Assembly (NCBI GenBank): GCA_009840225.1
Contig: VXOE01000394.1
Coordinates: 1 to 38,197 of the forward strand
Reading direction: 5' to 3'
DNA: 38,197 nt
DNA from: Caldilineaceae bacterium SB0662_bin_25
GTDB taxonomy: Bacteria > Chloroflexota > Anaerolineae > Caldilineales > Caldilineaceae
In this document: one piece after another, positions 6,026 through 31,954 of the stretch
Layout of the letters: every line of letters starts with the position of its first letter
Numbering within the stretch: the stretch's first letter is position 1
The notes under the pieces: model-generated
The model's database searches: none
What the model was told of the DNA's origin: nothing
The model's input: only the letters and a program-made list of their open reading frames with translations
Translations under genes and position numbers: made by a program

Positions 6026-6943
6026 TCAGGGCATGAAGTTCTTGAGATAGCGGCCGCTCTGGACAAGGGAGGCTTTGCGGCTTTCGAGCGAGTCTTCGTA
6101 GGCGCGGTCCTCGACTTCGATGCAGACGGGGCCGTCGTAGCCGACGTCGCTGAGGACGGAGAAGAACTGGCCCCAGTCGATGTCGCCGAGGCCGGGCAGT
6201 TTGGGCACGTGGAACTCGAGGGGGGTGGCCATGATGCCGACTTCGTCGAGACGGTGCTTGTCGAGGCGCACGTCCTTGGCATGGACGTGGAAGAGCTTGT
6301 CGGTGAAGTCCCGGATCGGCTTGAGGTAGTCCATGTGCTGCCAGATCATGTGCGAGGGGTCGTAGTTGAGGCCGAAATTGTCGCTGGGGATATCGGCGAA
6401 CATACGGCGCCAGATGGCGGGCGTGTGGGCCAGGTTTTTGCCGCCGGGCCATTCGTCGCTAGTGAAGGCCATGGGGCAGTTTTCGATGCCGATCTTGACG
6501 TTGTGGTCCTCGGCGAAGCGGATGAGGGGCGTCCAGACTTCGAGGAAGCGGGGCCAGTTGTCGTCGACTGATTTGGTCCAGTCGCGGCCGACGAAGGTGT
6601 TCATGATGCCGATGCCGAGGAGTGCGGAGGCCTCGATGACGCGCTTGATGTGGTCGATAGCGACCTGGGCTTCGGCCTGGTCCGGGGTGAGGGGGTTGGG
6701 GTAGTAGCCGAGCCCGCTGATGGAGATGCCGGCGGAGGCGGCGAGGTCGTTGACGCGGGCGGCGTCTGCTGCGGTGAAGCCGACGACGTCGATGTGGGTG
6801 ACGCCGGCGTAGCGGCGTTCGGCTTTGCCGGCGGGCCAGCACATGAGCTCGACGGTGGAGAAGCCGTTTTCGGCGGTGAATTGGACGACCTCTTCGAGGG
6901 AGAGGTCGGGGAGGATGGCGCTGGCGTAGCCTAGTTGCATCAT
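6026..6943 (-). CDS. Sugar phosphate isomerase/epimerase (AP endonuclease 2 TIM barrel)
   Basis: A 305-residue TIM-barrel protein of the xylose-isomerase-like / AP endonuclease family 2 superfamily. The divalent-metal ligands typical of the fold are recognisable: Glu in IGIENCP, Asp-His in NYDPSHM, His in FHVHAKD and Glu in CIEVED. Members interconvert sugars, inositols or hydroxypyruvate-type compounds; the substrate here cannot be told. Start: Met-Met-Gln-Leu at 6943 (or 6940), because AAGGAG lies at 6955-6960, about 11 bases upstream; the longer frame up to 6991 starts inside the promoter region. First gene of the operon with the beta-lactamase-like and deacylase-like genes, with a 34-bp gap to the next. 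Confidence 0.87.
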
Positions 6944-6993
6944 TGGGGTGGTTGCTCCTTTGTGGTTTTCGTTGCACGGGAATACTTCCACAC

Positions 6994-7022
6994 ATCATAG
7001 AGTTTTCAAATTGAGGTTTCAA
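6994..7022 (-). promoter_or_regulatory. Sigma70-type promoter of the isomerase operon
   Basis: On the minus strand a -35 hexamer TTGAAA (7017-7022) and a -10 hexamer TATGAT (6994-6999) are separated by exactly 17 bases. Each matches the consensus at five of six positions. It lies about 50 bp upstream of the isomerase start and would give a leader of roughly 45 nt containing the Shine-Dalgarno sequence. The -35 box overlaps the stop codon of the upstream helicase gene (7019-7021), so the metabolic operon has its own promoter at the tail of the low-GC cassette. Confidence 0.6.
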
Positions 7023-9238
7023 CTCGGTTGTAGAAGGTTCATCCGATTGGCCTTTACGAGCCACTCTCTTGTGCCACTAACATCGAAAGTTTTGGCTCCA
7101 TATCCTTCATCCAAGAGATCTTCGGGCAACAAATGGTCATATTTCTCTGTTTGCTTATTCACAGACAGTTTGGCCAAATCAGTATTGGAAACACCTTCCT
7201 CTTCAGCAAATTCGTTAAGGCAATTAAAGAGGGATGAGTGAGAGGCGTCATCAACTTCAATGATTCCTCTGAAACTGTTTGCTTTGTAACCGGCCCTAAC
7301 CAATAGCAGAGTCAATGTATTTATGACCTTATCTCCCATCCAAGGAATCAAACAAACATATTGTCCATGACTAACAACACGCCTGTTTTCCAGCCTCAGG
7401 TCTCGAAATGAAGCCAGGCCTTCAGAAAACAATCTTCGTGCCGTGTCATCCAAGAAGTCTATCGTTTTTCCTCCGGCCTCAACCCGATAATCTCCACTCA
7501 TATAGACATTCAACATTTCCTGTCGAACAAGATCGTGTACCGACATTCCACCGCCAAGGAAGACCGGCGGCTTGCCTCCCCTAGCAGGTACCACATAAAT
7601 TGCCTTCTTCTCTACGTCAATGTCGAGGACTTTCCACCGGTTTCCCCCAAATATAATATGCTGGTCTGGAGCAACAGGAGACTCAACGGGAAGCATCCCC
7701 AGGATTTTCCCCCCTTCTTTTACGATGATCCTATACTCCTGTGGTGTCTCGAAGACGGCATAGAAAGAAAAGTGGTTGACAAGCCGTTCTCCCTGTTCTG
7801 CAAGCACCAGTTCACCGCTGGACAATTGTGAAATCAGACTGCTTTCCCCCATTGCAGAGAGCAGGGCCTTGAAATGGTCGACAGAAACCTTGTCAAAAGG
7901 GCCAGATCTACAGAGAAGTGACCATAGTTGGTCTGTTCGCACTCCTCCCCACTGCGCTGTGACCGCCAGGACCTGATGCAAGAGTGTAGAGAAATGATAT
8001 AAATCGCTATCTGCTGGTTCATACCATTTTCGCAATAGGAGGCGGATCATCGCCAAACTCTGCAGAAGACTCAAACGCAGTCTGTCCGAGAGACTTGCGT
8101 TGGCTGTTAACTCGTCCTCTATGATGAACGTCCGAAGTACAGCCGGTGAGCCCCGACGCCCGGAGCGACCGAGTCGCTGCCGAAGGCTGGCCACGGAATG
8201 CGGTGCCGTGATTTGGGCAATCGAGTTTACCTTCCCAATGTCCATGCCCAATTCCAATGTCATCGTACAGACAGCGGTTGTAGGAAGCGTCTCCATATGC
8301 AGCCGTTTTTCCACGAAGCTACGCAGTTCTTTGGAAAGCGAACCGTGGTGGGCAAAAAACTCCTGAGGCACTTGGTTGTCTTGGCATAGATCATTGAGCC
8401 TCGCCACATACATTTCTGTATTGTGTCTGCTGTTTGCAAAGACCAAGTGAGAATCACCTCGTAAAAGCGCATAGAGATCCTCGGCGATCCGAAGCTCAGC
8501 CGGGTCTTCCTCTTCATGGGAAGCTGGGTTCAAGTAGCCCCTTAATTGCATTTTCAGAGCACTTTTGTTATCAGAATCAACTATGAGTTTGCATGGGAAA
8601 GAGCGATTTGGCCTTAGGCAATCCAGGACGCTGTCCATGTCTCCCAGTGTGGCGCTAAGTGCCAGCCTGGGGATAGGGGATCCCTGTCGGTCGAGAAGAT
8701 GCTCCAGTCGCGCCAACAAAGATTGAAGGTGGTAGCCACGTTCGAAACCAATGAAGGCGTGGTACTCGTCGATGACGACGTACTTTAGTGACTCAAACGC
8801 CGCTCGTACCCATCCTGCATCTAGAATAAGCCGAGCCTCAAGCGATTCGGGCGTAATAAGCAAAATGCCTTCGGGAAACTGCCTGGCAGCTTTCTTTTTA
8901 GACGGGGGGCTATCGCCATGCCAGGGAGTCACCTTCATGTCGATCATTTCGCAGAGGCTCTCCAGGCGGCGATACTGATCATTGATCAGAGCCTTCAACG
9001 GGCTTATGTAAAGAATACCAAATCCATCGGACTCGCCTGCTGTGGCACTGCAGGCAGGAAGAAACACGGCCTCTGTCTTTCCTCCCGCTGTTGGAGCACT
9101 GATTACGACGTCTGACTTACCGGAAAGTATCGGCTTGATGGCGCTCTTTTGAATCGCCCACAAGTCCCGCCATCCCTGCTTGTAGACCCATTTCTGGACA
9201 GCGGGGTGCAAGAGCAAGAATTCGTCGTTCATTGTCAT
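7019..9238 (-). CDS. DEAD/DEAH-box helicase, Lhr / BrxHI-like
   Basis: A 739-residue superfamily 2 helicase. Motifs by residue: Walker A APTAGGKT 48-55, the TPES block near 130, DEYH 157-160 (motif II), SAT 195-197, and motif VI QRLGRSGRRG 354-363. The C-terminal part (GGNRWKVLDID..., ARGGKPPVFLGGG) resembles the region after the helicase core in Lhr-type proteins, which are usually longer. BREX type 2 systems encode an Lhr-like helicase (BrxHI) next to BrxD; this gene likewise follows a BrxD-type ATPase, with which it shares an ATGA stop-start overlap. Likely ATP-driven nucleic-acid remodelling in the cytosol, possibly in phage defence (inference). Gene and neighbours are clearly AT-richer than the flanks. 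A second ATG two codons in (9232) could also serve as start. Confidence 0.88.
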   Translation of the reverse strand: MTMNDEFLLLHPAVQKWVYKQGWRDLWAIQKSAIKPILSGKSDVVISAPTAGGKTEAVFLPACSATAGESDGFGILYISPLKALINDQYRRLESLCEMIDMKVTPWHGDSPPSKKKAARQFPEGILLITPESLEARLILDAGWVRAAFESLKYVVIDEYHAFIGFERGYHLQSLLARLEHLLDRQGSPIPRLALSATLGDMDSVLDCLRPNRSFPCKLIVDSDNKSALKMQLRGYLNPASHEEEDPAELRIAEDLYALLRGDSHLVFANSRHNTEMYVARLNDLCQDNQVPQEFFAHHGSLSKELRSFVEKRLHMETLPTTAVCTMTLELGMDIGKVNSIAQITAPHSVASLRQRLGRSGRRGSPAVLRTFIIEDELTANASLSDRLRLSLLQSLAMIRLLLRKWYEPADSDLYHFSTLLHQVLAVTAQWGGVRTDQLWSLLCRSGPFDKVSVDHFKALLSAMGESSLISQLSSGELVLAEQGERLVNHFSFYAVFETPQEYRIIVKEGGKILGMLPVESPVAPDQHIIFGGNRWKVLDIDVEKKAIYVVPARGGKPPVFLGGGMSVHDLVRQEMLNVYMSGDYRVEAGGKTIDFLDDTARRLFSEGLASFRDLRLENRRVVSHGQYVCLIPWMGDKVINTLTLLLVRAGYKANSFRGIIEVDDASHSSLFNCLNEFAEEEGVSNTDLAKLSVNKQTEKYDHLLPEDLLDEGYGAKTFDVSGTREWLVKANRMNLLQPS

Positions 9239-10545
9239 AGAGTAAAGCTGGCCAGACCATCCCCGGAGTCCTCAAGCCCTGGCATATCGCTGGCCCGATC
9301 TTCCGGAATTGCAACGGAACCTAACAGGTCGCTCCATTCCATGTCTTGGTTCTGTTCCAAGACTGACATCATGTCGGCAAATGCCTTGATAGTGTTACGA
9401 GGTGTTCGGAAATAGGCATCGCCGATCGTATTGCTACAGTGATTTAAGAACGCCTCCAAAGCTTCATCTGGAACAAGATATCGATTTTCATCTCCCAACG
9501 CGAAAACGCGCCTGATGTTTTGCAGGAGGACATAGACCTCTTCTGGTGTCAGATTAGCTAAGTGAAGGGTAGGAGAGGAGTAATCGACCACGCCTGCTCG
9601 CCGCGCGAAACTGTTTTCCGCCAACCGCGACTGAAGGGCCTCATAGCTGTACAGTCCTTTACGTGTGTCGAAGAGGAACTCCGGCGTGCCTCCCATCAGG
9701 AACCCCAAGTGTTCTGCGGTGCCCTGAAGACAGTCGTTGAGGATCCACAGAATTTGCTCGTAGTTGGACAGGCGGGCGCGAGTACTGCTGAGCTTGTAGA
9801 GGTTGACCATTTCGTCCAGACAGACCAGCAAACCCCTATATCCGGCCTGGATCACAAGCAGACTCATGATCTTCAAGTTGCTGTAAAGTGAGGTGTCTGA
9901 AATGATGTCACGGACGCCGAGCGCTTTGCGAGCATCGGTTTTTGTCGAGAATTCCGCTCGCAGCCAGCGGATGGCGTTTGACATCAGTTCGTCATCATTG
10001 GTTGCATGCCCATGCCAGTACGACTCGATAACTTTGGCGAAATCATACCCGCCAACGTGTTCGGATATGGACGAAAGGCGCTCATCGATCACGGCGGCAA
10101 CGGACACTCCTTCCGAGGTGGCAGCTTGGTGGGCGCTGTTGACGAATCTTTCGACAATGGCCGTAAGAGCGTTGCCCTGCGGTTTGTTCCGCGTTGCCAT
10201 GTTGCGCATGAGTTCTGAGTAGAGATTCCTGGCCTGTCCTGAGGATGCGTGAATCCGTCTGTCAGGCGCCAGGTCTGCGTTAACCGAAACCAGCTGTTTT
10301 TCGAGGGCAATTGCCCTGATTACGCTCAGAAAAAAGGTCTTGCCAGAGCCGTATTCGCCTATAATCAGACGAAATGCAGACCCGCCCTGCGCAATTCGAT
10401 CTATGTCCTTGTTGATGGCCTCGATCTCGTTGACGCGTCCAACCTGTATGTGTTGGATACCGGCACGTGGAGCGACACCTGCCTTGAGCGACTGGATTAT
10501 TGCGTCACGTTCTCTGGGTCGTATTCGCGTTCGAATTAATGTCAT
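9235..10545 (-). CDS. brxD: BrxD-type P-loop ATPase (DUF2791, BrxC/BrxD family)
   Basis: A 436-residue ATPase. The start IRPRERDAIIQSLKAGVAP followed by HIQVGRVNEI is typical of the DUF2791 / BREX BrxD family. Walker A GEYGSGKT occupies 63-70; the Walker B strand GLLVCLDE ends in D244-E245; a sensor-like GGTPEFLFD and an arginine-rich LQSRLAE follow. In BREX type 2 (Pgl) systems BrxD sits beside the BrxHI helicase, as here, but its biochemical job is unknown. The gene is coupled on both sides by ATGA overlaps, with the TerB protein upstream and the helicase downstream, so the three products are probably made in fixed ratio and may form a complex. No PglX, PglZ or BrxC/PglY gene is in the window. 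The symbol reflects family similarity, not proven function. Confidence 0.85.
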   Translation of the reverse strand: MTLIRTRIRPRERDAIIQSLKAGVAPRAGIQHIQVGRVNEIEAINKDIDRIAQGGSAFRLIIGEYGSGKTFFLSVIRAIALEKQLVSVNADLAPDRRIHASSGQARNLYSELMRNMATRNKPQGNALTAIVERFVNSAHQAATSEGVSVAAVIDERLSSISEHVGGYDFAKVIESYWHGHATNDDELMSNAIRWLRAEFSTKTDARKALGVRDIISDTSLYSNLKIMSLLVIQAGYRGLLVCLDEMVNLYKLSSTRARLSNYEQILWILNDCLQGTAEHLGFLMGGTPEFLFDTRKGLYSYEALQSRLAENSFARRAGVVDYSSPTLHLANLTPEEVYVLLQNIRRVFALGDENRYLVPDEALEAFLNHCSNTIGDAYFRTPRNTIKAFADMMSVLEQNQDMEWSDLLGSVAIPEDRASDMPGLEDSGDGLASFTL

Positions 10546-12971
10546 GACATCGGTTCTTGGGTCTGAAAAGTGGAAATCTCTTCGGCCAAGTCAAGGTCTA
10601 CAAACAAGGTGGCGCCGTCTTCTATCAAGGGTGCGCCTACTCTTTCAAACGCCCAGTCGTTAATCGTTTCGACAGCCCCAGCGGCCATAAGGTGGAGTTC
10701 ATTGCAAAGCTCCTCCAATTCTTCGTTGGTCCAATCTGCCTTAGTGACAAGCTTGCCGTAGAGTTCTTGAAATGGGGAGTCCAGTCCCTCAAGCGACCCG
10801 TTTCTCGGGAGAGCGGCAGTGGGCGTTTCGATTTCGGGTTCTTCATCGAGGTCATCTTCGGCGAATATTGACTCAAGGACGGATTGGGCTTCCTTGGTCT
10901 CCGCTTCAAGCAGTCGCACAAGATCGCGATCAAGGGCTAAGGAAGAAGCAGGCTGGGTCGAGGGGGTAGAGGAGAGAATCGCGGCTTTGTCTGAGCGCTG
11001 AATCCTGCTGGAGGAAAGTTTGTGAATATCACTGGCTACCGACCCCTTGTCGAGACCAAGTCGCATGTAGAGCTTTTCGAGCTGTCTGACCTCTGAAGGA
11101 TCGATCTTGCCGTCTGCCAGCACAACGCTGACCAATATGTGGCTGATGGCAACTTTTTCGCCAGTTCCAAGAGCATCTAACCGACTCTTCAAACCCGACA
11201 TGTTTGCGGGTGCGTTGAGACGCCACAGCAGATATGCATCGAGCGACCGTCTTTCCGTTCCCGAAAGACGACTTTCCTGAAAGATCACGTCCCTCAGGGC
11301 CTTAACTTCCGTGTCGCTGATATGGTCGTCTGCGGCGGCGACAAGAGAGCCAAGGCGCAGCATCGTGCTGACCTTTATGAACTCCTGTGACGGAGAAAAG
11401 CTGTCTCCGTGTCCGCCATGGAAGAGTACGATCTTGCCGTTAATTTCAGGCTTAGCATTGTGAAACCGAATATCCGGCGCGACGCCATATCCTGCTTTCT
11501 CAGCGATATTTGACAACATTTCGGCTTCCCTTTTATTTATTTTTGAGGGGGCGCCTTTGCCAAAATGGTCAAGAATCGATTTGACTGAGACCAGTGCGCT
11601 CGGACCATCTACCTGCGTCTTTATCCACGACCTGAATTTCTCGAGACGGGGATTGGAGACCTTGGCAGCCAGGTCGTTGGGCAAGAAAGAGAAGGCGAGC
11701 AAAGAATCATGCGAATTCTCGGGTCGACCGACAAAGCGACTGAATTGAGCGAGTTCGCTGGTGCAAGATTCGGCCAAAGAGACCAGTACATTGAAGGGTC
11801 CCCTAAATCGACTTACGTCGGGAAGTTCGGGTCTGAAGGTATAGTATTCGATCAGGGAAGGGCTTGCGGGTTGGTAATCGAGCTGTAGTCTCGTCTTGGT
11901 AGGCGTTACCTTTAGACCGTCGCCAAACTTGCTCCAGTATCGCATCTTGAAGAGGGCATTGAATTCGTCCGGACAACGACGGGCTGGCGTGCGTAATGTA
12001 TATTCAGGATGGCTCCTCACCCAAGCGAGGGCTAATTCCGCATCGACAGGCTCTCCGTTCTGGACAATGTTGGCCAGCCTGAATTTGAATGCGGATGTAA
12101 AGCCATTTCTCGCAACCAATAGGTCGAAATCAGGTATTGGACCAAGGCTATTGTGATTTAAGATCCAAACATGTGACAGTAGGTCAGTCACATAGGAGCG
12201 AAACGAAAGTTTGTCGCCATAAATGCTTCTCAGTCGTTTCAGTTCCCGTATCAGAGCCTTTCGTTCGCTATCTGAGACTACGCCCTTCGCGTCGTCAACA
12301 AGCAAACGTCTTTCGATGCCGTAGAAGTAGAGGAAGGCATACCCTATGTATGTCTCAGGGTCAGAACGGTCGCTGGCGAGCCACTCGATATATGCAGCAC
12401 GGCAGTTGGGTGAGATGCGGCTGTAACTGGGCCAATAGTCCATTTGGTAGCCAGCATAGTTGGGATATTTGAAGTCAATGTCCAGGTTTGGATTGACTAA
12501 GGACGCGTCACTATCGGCAGTGAAGCGCGCCATATCAGTCAGTTGGTCACCAAAGTAGAAGAATCCTCCTTGGATGCTGAATTCTCCAACATTTACGCTC
12601 TCTCCGGGCCTGATCCACCTGGCTTGTCCCTTAGCCCTTCTTTGCCGACTCTTTTTTGCGAGTGACGAAGAAGGGAGGCGAAAGTCAGCAAGGTCCTTCA
12701 CCACTTTCTTCGGATCCACTCCCTCTTGTGGTCTTGGTTTCTTCGCGACACTCTTTGGTTTCTCCTTTGCCTCTGCGTTTGACTTCTTGACTGCGAAGAT
12801 ACCAGCAACAATTGAAAGGGGCCAAAAGAGCACGACAAAGCCTATACTGATCGCCCCGGTGAGCACCATCAGAATCGTGAATGCAAGTGCCAGGGGCACA
12901 TTCGAATAGAACAGCCCGATCGGCCCGAGCATCAGAGTAAGCAGGAATCCCTTCAGATAGGACTTCCTCAT
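10542..12971 (-). CDS. Membrane-anchored TerB_N / TerB / TerB_C domain protein
   Basis: An 809-residue multidomain protein. Residues 5-24 and about 28-62 are hydrophobic, ending in Lys-Lys; they resemble the small TM2/superinfection-immunity-type membrane domain. A basic linker (66-115) follows. TerB_N starts near 128 and includes YWPSYSRISPNCRAAYIEWL and GYAFLYFYGIERRLL (180-225). The TerB helical domain is at about 530-650 with acidic, metal-site-like loops (AADDHISDTE, LADGKIDPSE). TerB_C is at about 680-803. TerB proteins are tied to tellurite/stress systems and predicted to bind metal at the membrane. First gene of the coupled cassette, overlapping brxD by 4 bp; no strong Shine-Dalgarno or promoter was recognised in the 127-bp upstream gap. 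Its likely role is a membrane platform or sensor for the ATPase-helicase pair (inference). Confidence 0.85.
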   Translation of the reverse strand: MRKSYLKGFLLTLMLGPIGLFYSNVPLALAFTILMVLTGAISIGFVVLFWPLSIVAGIFAVKKSNAEAKEKPKSVAKKPRPQEGVDPKKVVKDLADFRLPSSSLAKKSRQRRAKGQARWIRPGESVNVGEFSIQGGFFYFGDQLTDMARFTADSDASLVNPNLDIDFKYPNYAGYQMDYWPSYSRISPNCRAAYIEWLASDRSDPETYIGYAFLYFYGIERRLLVDDAKGVVSDSERKALIRELKRLRSIYGDKLSFRSYVTDLLSHVWILNHNSLGPIPDFDLLVARNGFTSAFKFRLANIVQNGEPVDAELALAWVRSHPEYTLRTPARRCPDEFNALFKMRYWSKFGDGLKVTPTKTRLQLDYQPASPSLIEYYTFRPELPDVSRFRGPFNVLVSLAESCTSELAQFSRFVGRPENSHDSLLAFSFLPNDLAAKVSNPRLEKFRSWIKTQVDGPSALVSVKSILDHFGKGAPSKINKREAEMLSNIAEKAGYGVAPDIRFHNAKPEINGKIVLFHGGHGDSFSPSQEFIKVSTMLRLGSLVAAADDHISDTEVKALRDVIFQESRLSGTERRSLDAYLLWRLNAPANMSGLKSRLDALGTGEKVAISHILVSVVLADGKIDPSEVRQLEKLYMRLGLDKGSVASDIHKLSSSRIQRSDKAAILSSTPSTQPASSLALDRDLVRLLEAETKEAQSVLESIFAEDDLDEEPEIETPTAALPRNGSLEGLDSPFQELYGKLVTKADWTNEELEELCNELHLMAAGAVETINDWAFERVGAPLIEDGATLFVDLDLAEEISTFQTQEPMS

Positions 12972-13098: not shown

Positions 13099-14253
13099 TC
13101 AATCATTCTTGATCTCCACCCACCGCTCCTGCTCGTGACTTTGGAGGATGGCCTCGCAGAGGAGGATTTCTTTGTGGCCGTCGGCGAAGGTGGGGAAGGG
13201 TTGGGGTGCGTTGAGGTCGCCGGCGGCGATGTAGTCGTAGAAGGACTTGAAGGAGTGCTTGAAGGAGTCGTCGTAGCCCTCGTTGTGGCCGCCGGGATAG
13301 CCGATGTGGGCGAGGGCGGCTTCGGAGACGAGGCCGGGGTCGCGGAGCAGGAGTTGGTTGGGCTGGTTGCGGTGGCCGATCCAGAGTTCGTTGGGCTGTT
13401 CGCTGTTCCAGGCGACTGAGGCTTCGGAGCCGGCGATCTCGTAGCGGAGACAGTTTTTGCGACCGGCGGTTATCTGGGAGACCCAGAGCGATCCGTGGGC
13501 GCCGTTGGAGAAGCGGAGGAGCGCGGCGCCGCTGTCCTCGGTCTCGATGTCGATGGACTCGGTTGCGTTGGGGGCCTGGACCTTGGCGGAAAAGGTCTCG
13601 ACTTCGCCGGTGGGGCGCTGGCGGGTGGTATAGACGGTCTTGAGGTCGGCCTGCACGGCGGTGACGGAAAGGCCGGTGATGAACTGGACGAGGTCGAGCC
13701 AGTGGGTGCCGATGTCGGCGACGGCGCGCAGTTTGCCGCCTTCGCTGCTGAGAACGCGCCAGTTGTAGTCGGTGGGGTAGAGGAGCCAGTCCTGCACGTA
13801 ACTGCCGGTGATGGAGTGAATCTGGCCGAGGGTGCCGCTCTGAATCATGGAGCGGACTTCCCAGTTGAGAGGATAGAAGCGCATGTTGTAGTTGACGCCG
13901 GCGGCGAGTCCGCTTTCGCTAGCCAGCTGCACAAGCGCGCCGGATTCGGCTGAGGTCATGGCGAGCGGCTTTTCGCAGTGGACGTGTTTGCCGGCCTGGA
14001 GGGTCTGGCTTGTTTGCTCGAAGTGATGGCGATTGGGGGAGGTGATGTGGACGGACTCGATCTCGCCGTCGGCCAGGAGGTCGGCAAAGTCGCTGTATGC
14101 TCTTGGGATGCCGAGGTCGGCGGCGGCGCGCTGGGATTTCTCGGCGGAGGAGCCGAGGATGCCGGCCACGTTGATGCCCAGGCGGCGCAGGCCTTCGGTA
14201 TGGGCAGGGCCCATGAAGCCGGTTCCGACTATAGCAACGTTAGAGACGCTCAT
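13099..14253 (-). CDS. Gfo/Idh/MocA family oxidoreductase
   Basis: A 384-residue NAD(P)-dependent sugar or inositol dehydrogenase-like protein. The Rossmann motif GTGFMG is at 10-15, the EKPLAM motif with catalytic-type Lys95 is at 94-99, and D180/H184 in ADIGTHWLD match the substrate-binding Asp-His pair. The family oxidises or reduces ring hydroxyls of sugars, inositols and their derivatives. It lies 62 bp downstream of a ribose-type permease gene on the same strand, so it probably acts on the sugar or polyol imported by that transporter. Start ATG at 14253 gives Met-Ser-Val-Ser-Asn-Val, directly before the Rossmann strand. Its stop is followed by a sharp drop in GC into the TerB cassette. 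Confidence 0.9.
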
Positions 14254-29463: not shown

Positions 29464-30888
29464 GTGAAAAAGACGAGAATTCGAACACTATTTCTGGGCA
29501 GGCCAAAAGGTGACAGCTTTCCCGGTGAGGAGAACGAAGAGTGGCCGATCTATCAGGGTTCGTTCAGCCATGAGAACCTGGCCGCGCGCTACAGGGAGGA
29601 GTTGAAGGCGTACGGGAGAGAGGTGGAATTCACGGGCCAGACGCTGGTGCGGACGCGTGGGGAGTTGGTAGACACGGCTGCGAAGGTACAGGACGAGGAC
29701 GGTGTCCTTGTTTTCATTCTGGGCCTGTTTCCGAATGTAATGCAGAAGGAGATTGCGAGCTGGGGCAAGCCGACGGTGATGTTCAACCCGACGGAGGCGC
29801 CGCTTTCGCCGCTGGCCTGGCTGCACAATTTCGTGCCGGTGAAGGGCAAAAGCAACGTGATTCCGGTGCTTTCGTCGGATTTCGCGGACGTGGGGAAGAA
29901 GATCGGCGTGTTGAAGGCTATTCATAAGATGCGACAGTCGAAGGTGCTGTACCAGCAGTCGCACACGCCGAAGCAGGTGGAGTCGAGCCGCAGGTGGTTC
30001 GAGGAAGGGTGGGGCGGGATCCATCTCTTTTCCGACCTGACGCCGTTGAGCGACGGCTTTATCAAGCAGGCGAAGGAGAGGTTGGGGCTTGAGATCAAGG
30101 ATATCCCTCCTCAGCGGCTGATCGCGGCCTACCAGAACGCCGATGCCAGGGCTGCGGAGGCGCTGGCGCAGAGTAGGATTACGGGGGCCACGGATGTGGT
30201 CGAGCCGACGAGGGAGGACGTGGTCGAATCGTGCAAGCTGTACCTGGGGATCAAGCAGATTCTGGCCGAGGAGGGGGCTCAGGGTATCACCGAGCACGGC
30301 ATCTGTATGGGGAGCGGGCCGTATCCGCTGCCGTGCCTGGCGTTTTCGATGCTGAACGACGAGGGGCTGGCCGGGATCTGCCAGCTGGACCTGTCGAGTA
30401 CGATCACGCAGCTGTTGATCGGGTATCTGGCGGACCGGCCGGGCTTTATCGGCCATATTCATATCGATACGGGGCGGAATCTGATCGGGATGTCCCACGA
30501 CTTCAGTGCGACGAGGCTGGGGGGATGGGAAAGCGAGGAGGCGGAGGAATACGCTTTTCGCAATCACCAGGGGTTGTACCGAAGCACGTGTGTGAACGTA
30601 CAAATGGAGGTGGGGCAGACGGTGACGATCGCCCAGTATGTGCCCTTCGACCGCATGTATGTCTTTACCGGGGTGATTGACAGCAATGTGAGTCCACAGC
30701 GGGACTGCCGGACGTCGGTGGCGATCCGGGTAGCCGACGTGAAGAGGCTGCTGCGGAACTGTATGAAGGCGGAGCACCCGCTGACGCCGGGGGGCCACAG
30801 GCTCCTGTTTTACGGGGACTGGGTGGATGAGATTGAGGATTTGGGGCAATTGTTGGGATTTGAAGTTGTGAACGATATGGAGCAGTAG
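29464..30888 (+). CDS. L-fucose/L-arabinose isomerase-like protein
   Basis: A 474-residue protein with the layout of the FucI/AraA-related family: an N-terminal Rossmann-like domain (VLVFILGLFPNVMQKEIASWGKPTV), a middle domain with the GICMGSGPYPLPCLAFSMLNDEGLAGICQLDL segment, and a C-terminal domain with HIHIDTGRNLIGMSH. Family members isomerise aldoses and ketoses with a Mn-type metal, but many homologues have no assigned substrate. Start chosen at GTG 29464 (Met-Lys-Lys-Thr) with GGGAG about 8 bases upstream; the longer frame to 29299 has no comparable signal. It is followed 19 bp downstream by a dehydrogenase, so isomerisation and oxidation of one sugar or polyol is a likely pairing. Confidence 0.78.
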   Translation: MKKTRIRTLFLGRPKGDSFPGEENEEWPIYQGSFSHENLAARYREELKAYGREVEFTGQTLVRTRGELVDTAAKVQDEDGVLVFILGLFPNVMQKEIASWGKPTVMFNPTEAPLSPLAWLHNFVPVKGKSNVIPVLSSDFADVGKKIGVLKAIHKMRQSKVLYQQSHTPKQVESSRRWFEEGWGGIHLFSDLTPLSDGFIKQAKERLGLEIKDIPPQRLIAAYQNADARAAEALAQSRITGATDVVEPTREDVVESCKLYLGIKQILAEEGAQGITEHGICMGSGPYPLPCLAFSMLNDEGLAGICQLDLSSTITQLLIGYLADRPGFIGHIHIDTGRNLIGMSHDFSATRLGGWESEEAEEYAFRNHQGLYRSTCVNVQMEVGQTVTIAQYVPFDRMYVFTGVIDSNVSPQRDCRTSVAIRVADVKRLLRNCMKAEHPLTPGGHRLLFYGDWVDEIEDLGQLLGFEVVNDMEQ

Positions 30889-30907
30889 GGGAAATGCGGG
30901 CAGGAAA

Positions 30908-31954
30908 GTGATCAAGATCAAGGCTGTTGAAATCACTGGGCCGCGACAGGTAACTGTTGTCGAGGATGAGCTTGCGGAACCGGGCGCGGGGGAAGTGGCG
31001 ATGCGCTCGCTGTACTCGGGCATCAGTCATGGGACAGAGATGAACGTGTATCGCGGCGACGCGCCGATGTGGCAGCGAAAGCAGGACCGTCGCAGACGGC
31101 TGTTCGTGGAGTCTGACGAACCCGAGTGGGAATACCCCTTGCGATACGGGTATGCTTGCGTTGGTGTGATCACGGCTGTGGGGCGCAATGTGACAGAGTT
31201 TGCAGAAGGCGACGTCGTCTTCAGTTTTGCCCCGCACCAGTCGGCGCACGTGCTGCCGGCGGGTTCGGTGTCCAAGCTGCCGAAGGGACTTGATCTGCGG
31301 GCAGGTGTGCTCACGGCCGTCCTGAACACTACTTTCAACGGCATATTGGACGCGGACCTGCATTTGGGGGAGTGCGTGGTGGTCTTCGGCCAGGGTGTCC
31401 TGGGGCAGTTGACGGTGCAGTGGGCCAAGCTGTCTGGCGCGTCACCGGTGATCGCGGTTGACCTTATCGAGAAGAGGCTGGAGATTTCCAAGAGGGTGAG
31501 CGGCGCGGATCTCGTCTTCAATGCGGGCGAGGAAAGGGACATCGCGTTGGCGGTGCGGGAGTTGACGGACGATCGCGGTGCGGACGTGGTGTTCGAGTTT
31601 TCGGCGAGTGATCGGGCTCTGAACGAGGCGATCCGCACTGTTTGTTACAACGGCAAGGTGATCGTGATGTCGTGGTATGCGGGCGCGCTGGCCAACGTCT
31701 ACCCTGGCGCGGAGTTCCACCACAACCGCATACAGCTGATCTCGTCGCAGATAGCCGGCATCAGCCCTGAGCTGTCGCATCGGTGGACGGCCGCGCGGCG
31801 CATGGAGGCGGTGCTTTCATTGATGCCCAAGCTGAATCTGGAGGGGTTGATTACGGATGTGGTCGACCTTGAGGGTGCGGCTGCGGCCTACGAGATGATC
31901 GATACGCGCCCGCAGGATGTTTTGCAGGTGGTGCTCGACTACGGTGAGGACTGA
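30908..31954 (+). CDS. Medium-chain (zinc-type) alcohol dehydrogenase-like oxidoreductase
   Basis: A 348-residue MDR-superfamily protein starting at GTG (Met-Ile-Lys-Ile-Lys). The N-terminal GroES-like domain has GEVAMRSLYSGISHGTEM, where the catalytic zinc Cys of classical alcohol dehydrogenases is replaced by Ser. The nucleotide-binding motif is GQGVLGQL, followed by an acidic VDLIEKRLE strand end, which favours NAD(H). Similar proteins are annotated as zinc-binding dehydrogenases or BchC-like. AGGAAA lies immediately before the GTG, an unusually short spacing. Probably co-transcribed with the isomerase-like gene. Confidence 0.85.
   Translation: MIKIKAVEITGPRQVTVVEDELAEPGAGEVAMRSLYSGISHGTEMNVYRGDAPMWQRKQDRRRRLFVESDEPEWEYPLRYGYACVGVITAVGRNVTEFAEGDVVFSFAPHQSAHVLPAGSVSKLPKGLDLRAGVLTAVLNTTFNGILDADLHLGECVVVFGQGVLGQLTVQWAKLSGASPVIAVDLIEKRLEISKRVSGADLVFNAGEERDIALAVRELTDDRGADVVFEFSASDRALNEAIRTVCYNGKVIVMSWYAGALANVYPGAEFHHNRIQLISSQIAGISPELSHRWTAARRMEAVLSLMPKLNLEGLITDVVDLEGAAAAYEMIDTRPQDVLQVVLDYGED

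What the first reader, a model, noticed from the sequence alone, without database searches (positions are those of the whole stretch)
7019..12971. Stand-alone TerB_N/TerB/TerB_C + BrxD ATPase + Lhr-like helicase cassette, a candidate defence system outside BREX
Three genes coupled by two exact ATGA overlaps encode a membrane-anchored TerB-type protein, a BrxD (DUF2791) P-loop ATPase and an Lhr/BrxHI-like helicase. Established: BrxD and BrxHI occur together in BREX type 2 with PglX, PglZ, PglW and PglY; TerB domains belong to ter stress systems. Seen: none of the other BREX genes is present, and metabolic genes flank directly on both sides. Inference: the TerB protein supplies a membrane platform or sensor in place of BREX recognition parts, and the ATPase-helicase pair acts on invading nucleic acid. 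Linkage of TerB_N/TerB_C proteins with ATPases and helicases may have been noted in comparative genomics, but I know of no experimental function for this trio.
Basis: partly seen in the sequence, partly recalled or inferred. Interest (0 to 1): 0.82.

Follow-up and report, generated by a model that had tools for sequence, protein, structure and literature searches.

The report
A Shango anti-phage defence system
Three linked genes in an uncultured Caldilineaceae-type bacterium are the already described Shango anti-phage system, sitting in a spot between metabolic genes where related genomes carry the same system, a different defence-type helicase, a repeat element or almost nothing.

Summary
Three minus-strand genes (809, 436, 739 aa) joined by two ATGA overlaps encode a TerB_N/TerB/TerB_C protein, a BrxC/BrxD-family ATPase and an SF2 helicase. 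But the trio is a known system, Shango: PADLOC gives SngA 4.7e-90, SngB 4.2e-178, SngC 9.1e-259, well above BrxD and BrxHI. Shango homologues have published anti-phage activity (PMC10250203). The order A-B-C recurs in 78 of 80 fetched relatives; in the other two the contig ends before SngC could finish. The own genome shows no PglZ and no second BrxC/BrxD over cut-off.

Two modest points may be new. First, the gap between an oxidoreductase and an isomerase gene is a variable slot in this genus: of 16 genomes with the oxidoreductase, 5 hold Shango, 1 a DruE-type pair, 3 a repeat-family insert, 6 are nearly empty, 1 is cut by a contig end. Second, the SngA N-terminus varies: membrane segment(s), membrane segment(s) plus about 240 residues, or none predicted. 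Mechanism is unproven; I favour a membrane-tethered helicase acting on phage DNA.

The parts
10542..12971 (-). SngA: N-terminal hydrophobic hairpin (about residues 18-49), TerB_N (122-330), middle region (331-539), TerB (540-643), TerB_C (669-799)
   Evidence: PADLOC SngA 4.7e-90; Pfam; hydropathy
9235..10545 (-). SngB: AAA+ ATPase of the BrxC/BrxD family; Walker A GEYGSGKT from residue 63, Walker B LLVCLDE from residue 239
   Evidence: PADLOC SngB 4.2e-178; Pfam PF10923 2.6e-149; motifs
7019..9238 (-). SngC: SF2 helicase; motifs APTAGGKT (48), DEYH (157), SAT (195), QRLGRSGR (354)
   Evidence: PADLOC SngC 9.1e-259; Pfam DEAD and Helicase_C; motifs
10542..10545 (-). ATGA overlap of SngA stop and SngB start
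9235..9238 (-). ATGA overlap of SngB stop and SngC start; a 4-base SngB/SngC overlap is seen in 59 of 78 relatives
13099..14253 (-). GFO/IDH/MocA oxidoreductase: upstream border of the variable slot, not part of Shango
   Evidence: Pfam; present in 16 of 17 genus genomes
6026..6991 (-). Xylose-isomerase-like TIM barrel: downstream border of the variable slot, not part of Shango (frame as listed; relatives' junctions suggest a later start)
   Evidence: Pfam; slot census

Best explanation
This is a complete Shango anti-phage system (SngA-SngB-SngC), of low GC and probably foreign origin, in a slot between two metabolic genes of an uncultured Caldilineaceae genus. Identity, order and base composition are shown; anti-phage function is transferred from tested homologues and was not tested here. 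Most likely mechanism (inferred, about 0.4): SngA sits in the inner membrane through its N-terminal hairpin and holds the TerB modules as sensor or tether; SngB, an AAA+ ATPase, loads or activates SngC; SngC unwinds or moves along incoming or replicating phage DNA near the membrane, stalling replication or exposing the DNA to host nucleases. No nuclease domain was recognised in the trio by Pfam. The confidence given is for identity and anti-phage role; the mechanism alone is about 0.4.
For: All three proteins hit the Shango models best (SngB 590.9 vs BrxD 147.4 bits; SngC 859 vs BrxHI 381.3; SngA the only PADLOC hit). The order recurs in relatives. Walker and helicase motifs are intact and their key residues are invariant in the alignments. 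GC 0.50-0.53 and GC3 0.52-0.60 against flanking genes at 0.63-0.66 and 0.82-0.88. [quoted passage not shown] N-terminal membrane segments are predicted in 52 of 81 SngA proteins. SngC, BrxHI, DruE and DpdJ are reported as a potentially distinct clade of immune SF2 helicases (PMC12278908, passage). BrxD is proposed to load or activate BrxHI (PMC12839542, passage). SNIPE shows that a membrane-bound protein can cut phage DNA during injection (PMC13190303, abstract). SngA diverges most: identity to the window's protein 33-64%, against 67-89% for SngB and 52-86% for SngC, as a sensor might.
Against: No Caldilineaceae Shango has been tested with phage. Shango did not act on all phages tried. 29 of 81 SngA proteins, that of G001 included, show no N-terminal membrane segment at my threshold (some truncated or borderline), so anchoring may not be essential. 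Nothing shows what SngA senses. No promoter signal: 2 promoter-like sites in the region against 4.6 expected. SngA divergence could be relaxed constraint, and part of the low column identity comes from length variation at its N-terminus.
Confidence: 0.85

Rival explanations
1. Same Shango system, but it works by abortive infection: SngB-SngC sense phage DNA and SngA is a membrane-acting effector that stops the cell.
For: Many SngA homologues have a predicted membrane segment and no nuclease domain was recognised in the trio.
Against: [quoted passage not shown] The G001 SngA lacks the membrane segment while the TerB domains are kept.
Confidence: 0.25
2. A remnant or accessory module of BREX type 2 (BrxD plus BrxHI) that gained a TerB gene.
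For: SngB and SngC are recognisable relatives of BrxD and BrxHI.
Against: No PglZ and no second BrxC/BrxD over cut-off in the own genome; SngB is far below the NCBIfam BrxD cut-off; an SngA frame accompanies SngB in 80 of 80 fetched relatives. PglX and PglW were not searched.
Confidence: 0.03
3. A housekeeping or tellurite/oxidative-stress module, not defence.
For: The TerB domain is named for tellurite resistance; flanks are metabolic.
Against: Patchy presence (SngA in 5 of 17 genus genomes, 0 of 29 other family members), different base composition from the flanks, SngB-like matches on 684 plasmid records (646 at 60-80% identity), and phage assays on homologues.
Confidence: 0.04

Closest known systems
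Shango (SngABC), tested from P. aeruginosa PA14 and reported from E. coli
   Same: Three genes: TerB protein, ATPase, helicase; best PADLOC hits for all three.
   Different: Host is Chloroflexota. SngA here has two overlapping N-terminal hydrophobic segments; outside the genus 48 of 76 SngA proteins have an N-terminal segment at my threshold, mostly a single one.
BREX type 2 BrxD-BrxHI dyad
   Same: PF10923-family ATPase beside a BrxHI-like helicase.
   Different: No PglZ found in the genome; BrxD equivalog cut-off not met.
Druantia DruE
   Same: SngC and DruE are placed in one potential immune helicase clade (passage); a DruE-type helicase fills the same slot in congener G015.
   Different: Much larger helicase with a different partner; no TerB or PF10923 protein in that insert.
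SNIPE
   Same: Works-like analogy only: membrane-bound action on entering phage DNA (abstract).
   Different: SNIPE is a nuclease; no homology was tested or is claimed.

Membership tests
Shango | SngA: TerB-type protein matching the SngA model | tested here: met
   PADLOC SngA 4.7e-90, 301.7 bits
Shango | SngB: ATPase matching SngB better than BrxD | tested here: met
   590.9 vs 147.4 bits
Shango | SngC: helicase matching SngC better than BrxHI | tested here: met
   859 vs 381.3 bits
Shango | Three adjacent genes in the order A-B-C | tested here: met
   same order in 78 of 80 relatives
Shango | Anti-phage activity | not testable with these tools
   Shown for homologues by others
BREX (type 2) | PglZ present | tested here: not met
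   No match in the own genome, 94.95% complete
BREX (type 2) | A further BrxC/BrxD-family ATPase besides the trio's | tested here: not met
   Only SngB over cut-off; one 21.6-bit match below the 22.2 cut-off
BREX (type 2) | BrxD equivalog score | tested here: not met
   144.7 bits, cut-off 350
BREX (type 2) | PglX and PglW present | not tested
   No genome search was made for these

The most novel reading that the evidence does not exclude
In this Caldilineaceae genus the gap between the oxidoreductase and isomerase genes of a sugar-type operon is a small defence hotspot that keeps the operon's direction and exchanges immune cassettes built on related SF2 helicases (Shango SngC, DruE type). 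Shango there has a modular sensor whose membrane hairpin and a second N-terminal module are gained and lost while the SngB-SngC engine stays fixed.
Probability: 0.4. Interest if true: 0.42.

Novelty: new member of a known kind. Interest (0 to 1): 0.27.

Why it matters
The trio's identity is settled, so it need not be chased as a new system. Shango's mechanism is still listed as unknown in a 2026 review (PMC12926258, passage). The natural variation of SngA at this slot (membrane segment, segment plus extra module, neither) shows which part may be swappable and suggests a direct membrane-tether test. A defence slot between metabolic genes, with no tRNA in the window and no integrase among the 21 window proteins scanned with Pfam, would be an unusual kind of hotspot.

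Tried and rejected
BREX remnant: disfavoured by the PglZ, BrxC/BrxD and BrxD-equivalog tests. Solved structures by sequence: none for SngB at E 0.1; for SngA one weak hit (2h5n, E 0.015); SngC matches other SF2 helicases. Phage records: no SngB match at E 1e-20. Promoters and terminators: not above shuffles. Repeats: nothing that I could take for slot-edge duplications; no tRNA in the window.

Different histories of Shango and flanks: not shown. With the five carriers and six topologies, the flank proteins accept the best Shango topology (p-AU 0.716) and two of three flank-type ones; Shango rejects the three flank-type topologies that I tried.

Neighbour enrichment: 47 of 80 loci qualified (three genus loci left out; at least 4 kb needed on each side and all three genes present). 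Of 94 nearest ORFs, 93 were scanned; one of 1571 aa was dropped for length. Pfam showed among its first 25 of 81 families 5 UvrD-type helicases, 5 FAD oxidoreductases, 4 Fic, 2 AbiEii, 2 ArdC-type, 2 integrases, 1 EcoRV and various metabolic proteins; the PADLOC hits shown are nearly all GajB/UvrD-type models on the same 5 members. No control was run: inconclusive.

Alignments: 51, 45 and 31 of the 74 listed relatives, plus the window's own, for SngA, SngC and SngB. Six loci (L044, L058, L060, L074, L091, L106) were left out of the list as cut, shortened or incomplete. The extra SngA module of G008, G011 and G001 was not recognised by Pfam; 'TPR-like' in my notes was by eye only.

Papers. Passages and one section: PMC10250203. 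Passages only: PMC10952713, PMC10221251, PMC12839542, PMC12926258, PMC13192584, PMC12278908. Abstract and outline: PMC13190303. All others: search listing only. Millman et al. 2022 was not read; it is known here through PMC10250203 and recall. Searches that could have shown a Shango mechanism, SngA membrane anchoring or Shango in Chloroflexota. I saw no such report in the listings, but PMC10924106 holds both 'Shango' and 'Chloroflex' and was not opened, and preprint and subscription literature is mostly not held.

Full report
What is there. Three genes on the minus strand from 12971 to 7019 encode proteins of 809, 436 and 739 aa. Both junctions are ATGA overlaps. The first has TerB_N, TerB and TerB_C domains and an N-terminal hydrophobic hairpin. 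The second is a BrxC/BrxD-family ATPase and the third an SF2 helicase. Active-site motifs are intact.

What it is. PADLOC identifies the trio as Shango: SngA 4.7e-90, SngB 4.2e-178, SngC 9.1e-259; the BREX relatives come second (BrxD 1.7e-43, BrxHI 2e-114). The NCBIfam BrxD model is far below cut-off. The own genome (94.95% complete, 396 contigs) has no PglZ match and only one PF10923 match over cut-off, SngB itself. TerB_N gives one match, SngA. Shango was tested by others: the PA14 system in PAO1 changed plating 10-100-fold for many but not all phages and protected liquid cultures; the authors also cite a tenfold effect on two phages for the E. coli system (PMC10250203). A 2026 review lists its mechanism as unknown (PMC12926258, passage).

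Host. Three genus relatives have contigs whose lengths equal those of records titled Caldilineaceae bacterium (G011 with OY282376.1, G008 with JAJDXQ010000045.1, G001 with VXMH01000076.1), which lies in Chloroflexota.

Relatives. A scan of genome contigs with SngB found 513 encoding stretches; the best 80 were kept. An SngA frame lies upstream of SngB in 80 of 80 (partial in L044, L058, L060 and L074) and SngC downstream in 78 of 80; in L060 and L106 only about 1.9 and 2.2 kb of contig remain after SngB. SngC is shortened in L091. A 4-base SngB-SngC overlap is seen in 59 of 78. Apart from three Caldilineaceae records, the kept loci are by title mostly Gammaproteobacteria, at 67-74% SngB identity. 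In plasmids, 684 records match SngB at E 1e-20, 646 of them at 60-80% identity; 542 are predicted conjugative. No phage record matches. In Chloroflexota SngB was found at E 1e-80 in 6 of 301 genomes drawn, the own one included. SngA was found in 5 of 17 genus genomes and 0 of 29 other members of the family.

The slot. The upstream oxidoreductase gene is present in 16 of 17 genus genomes; G003 lacks it. I fetched its surroundings in the 15 others. Between it and the isomerase gene, measured between tblastn match ends, lie: Shango in 5 (G000, G001, G008, G011, G012); in G015 8.8 kb with two overlapping genes, a 1194-aa protein without a Pfam or PADLOC match and a 1641-aa helicase matching DruE (9.3e-219); 1.2-1.4 kb without an open frame above 146 aa in G004, G005 and G002; 51-99 bp in G016, G013, G006, G007, G009 and G010 (G013's contig ends inside the isomerase gene); and in G014 the contig ends within the slot. 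In the 11 slots without Shango, tblastn found no Shango remnant; the only matches were short SngC ones in G015 (E 0.01 and 0.80), where the insert itself encodes an SF2 helicase. The 1.3-kb insert of G004 has counterparts in the slots of G005, G002 and G014 and belongs to a dispersed repeat family: matches in 16 of 17 genus genomes, 36 reported in the own genome though only 24 of 171 candidates were scored there. Shango has GC 0.50-0.53 against 0.63-0.66 in six flanking genes. In all six genomes the cassette runs in the direction of the flanking genes.

History. The five Shango loci form one clade against 13 chosen outgroups (support 1.000). On the unrooted flank-protein tree of 14 of the 16 genomes (G013 and G014 not included), four carriers have non-carriers as nearest neighbours and G011 branches next to a mixed group. 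That fits repeated exchange at one slot or one gain with several losses. A topology test did not separate these.

SngA N-termini. Own and G012 have the hydrophobic region shortly before TerB_N. G008 and G011 have it plus about 240 extra residues. G001 has extra residues that look related by eye and no predicted membrane segment. At my threshold two segments score in own and G008 and one in G011 and G012, so 'hairpin' in the last two is by eye. Of 81 SngA proteins examined (79 of the 80 loci, L044 dropped as cut at its start, plus own and G012), 52 have a segment within the first 150 residues and 29 do not; several of the latter are truncated or just below threshold. SngA is the most divergent component: mean column identity 34% (52 sequences), against 80% for SngB (32) and 61% for SngC (46). 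Within SngA the N-terminus and linkers vary most.

How it probably works. Shown: domain content, intact motifs, recurrent order. From papers: anti-phage activity of homologues; BrxD proposed to load or activate BrxHI; SngC, BrxHI, DruE and DpdJ in one potential immune helicase clade. Inferred: SngA tethers or senses at the membrane, SngB loads SngC, SngC acts on phage DNA. The membrane analogy is SNIPE (abstract), with no homology claimed. I put this at about 0.4 and an abortive-infection version at 0.25. The lack of a membrane segment in G001 and others counts against a strict need for anchoring.

Verdict. It is a new member of Shango in a host group where I saw no report (one paper holding both words was not opened), with a possible defence slot and SngA modularity as the fresh elements.

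Noticed in passing
L119:3203-11709 (G015) and L131:2240-10785 (G003): Two overlapping genes: an unknown 1194-aa protein (no Pfam or PADLOC match at E 0.001; possible C-terminal Cys/His finger by eye; no plasmid match) and a DruE-type helicase. The pair recurs in G003, which lacks the oxidoreductase gene, at 58% and 76% identity; the helicase was found in 2 of 17 genus genomes.
   Followed up: partly
L107:12660-13960 (G004): The 1.3-kb insert in the slot belongs to a dispersed repeat family with matches in 16 of 17 genus genomes.
   Followed up: partly
window:24296-25519 (+): ATPase matching AAA_21 ('putative AbiEii toxin' model, 6e-37) and AAA_15; possibly another conflict gene.
   Followed up: no
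window:25774-26997 (-) and 29488-31023 (-): Open frames of 407 and 511 aa without a Pfam match at E 0.001; may not be genes.
   Followed up: no
plasmid records: SngB-like matches on 684 plasmid records, 451 named Klebsiella, 542 predicted conjugative.
   Followed up: no
L008 and L010 (G072): The SngA match of another Chloroflexota genome falls in two adjacent pieces that both reach the model's C-terminal part, suggesting a repeated or rearranged end just before SngB.
   Followed up: no
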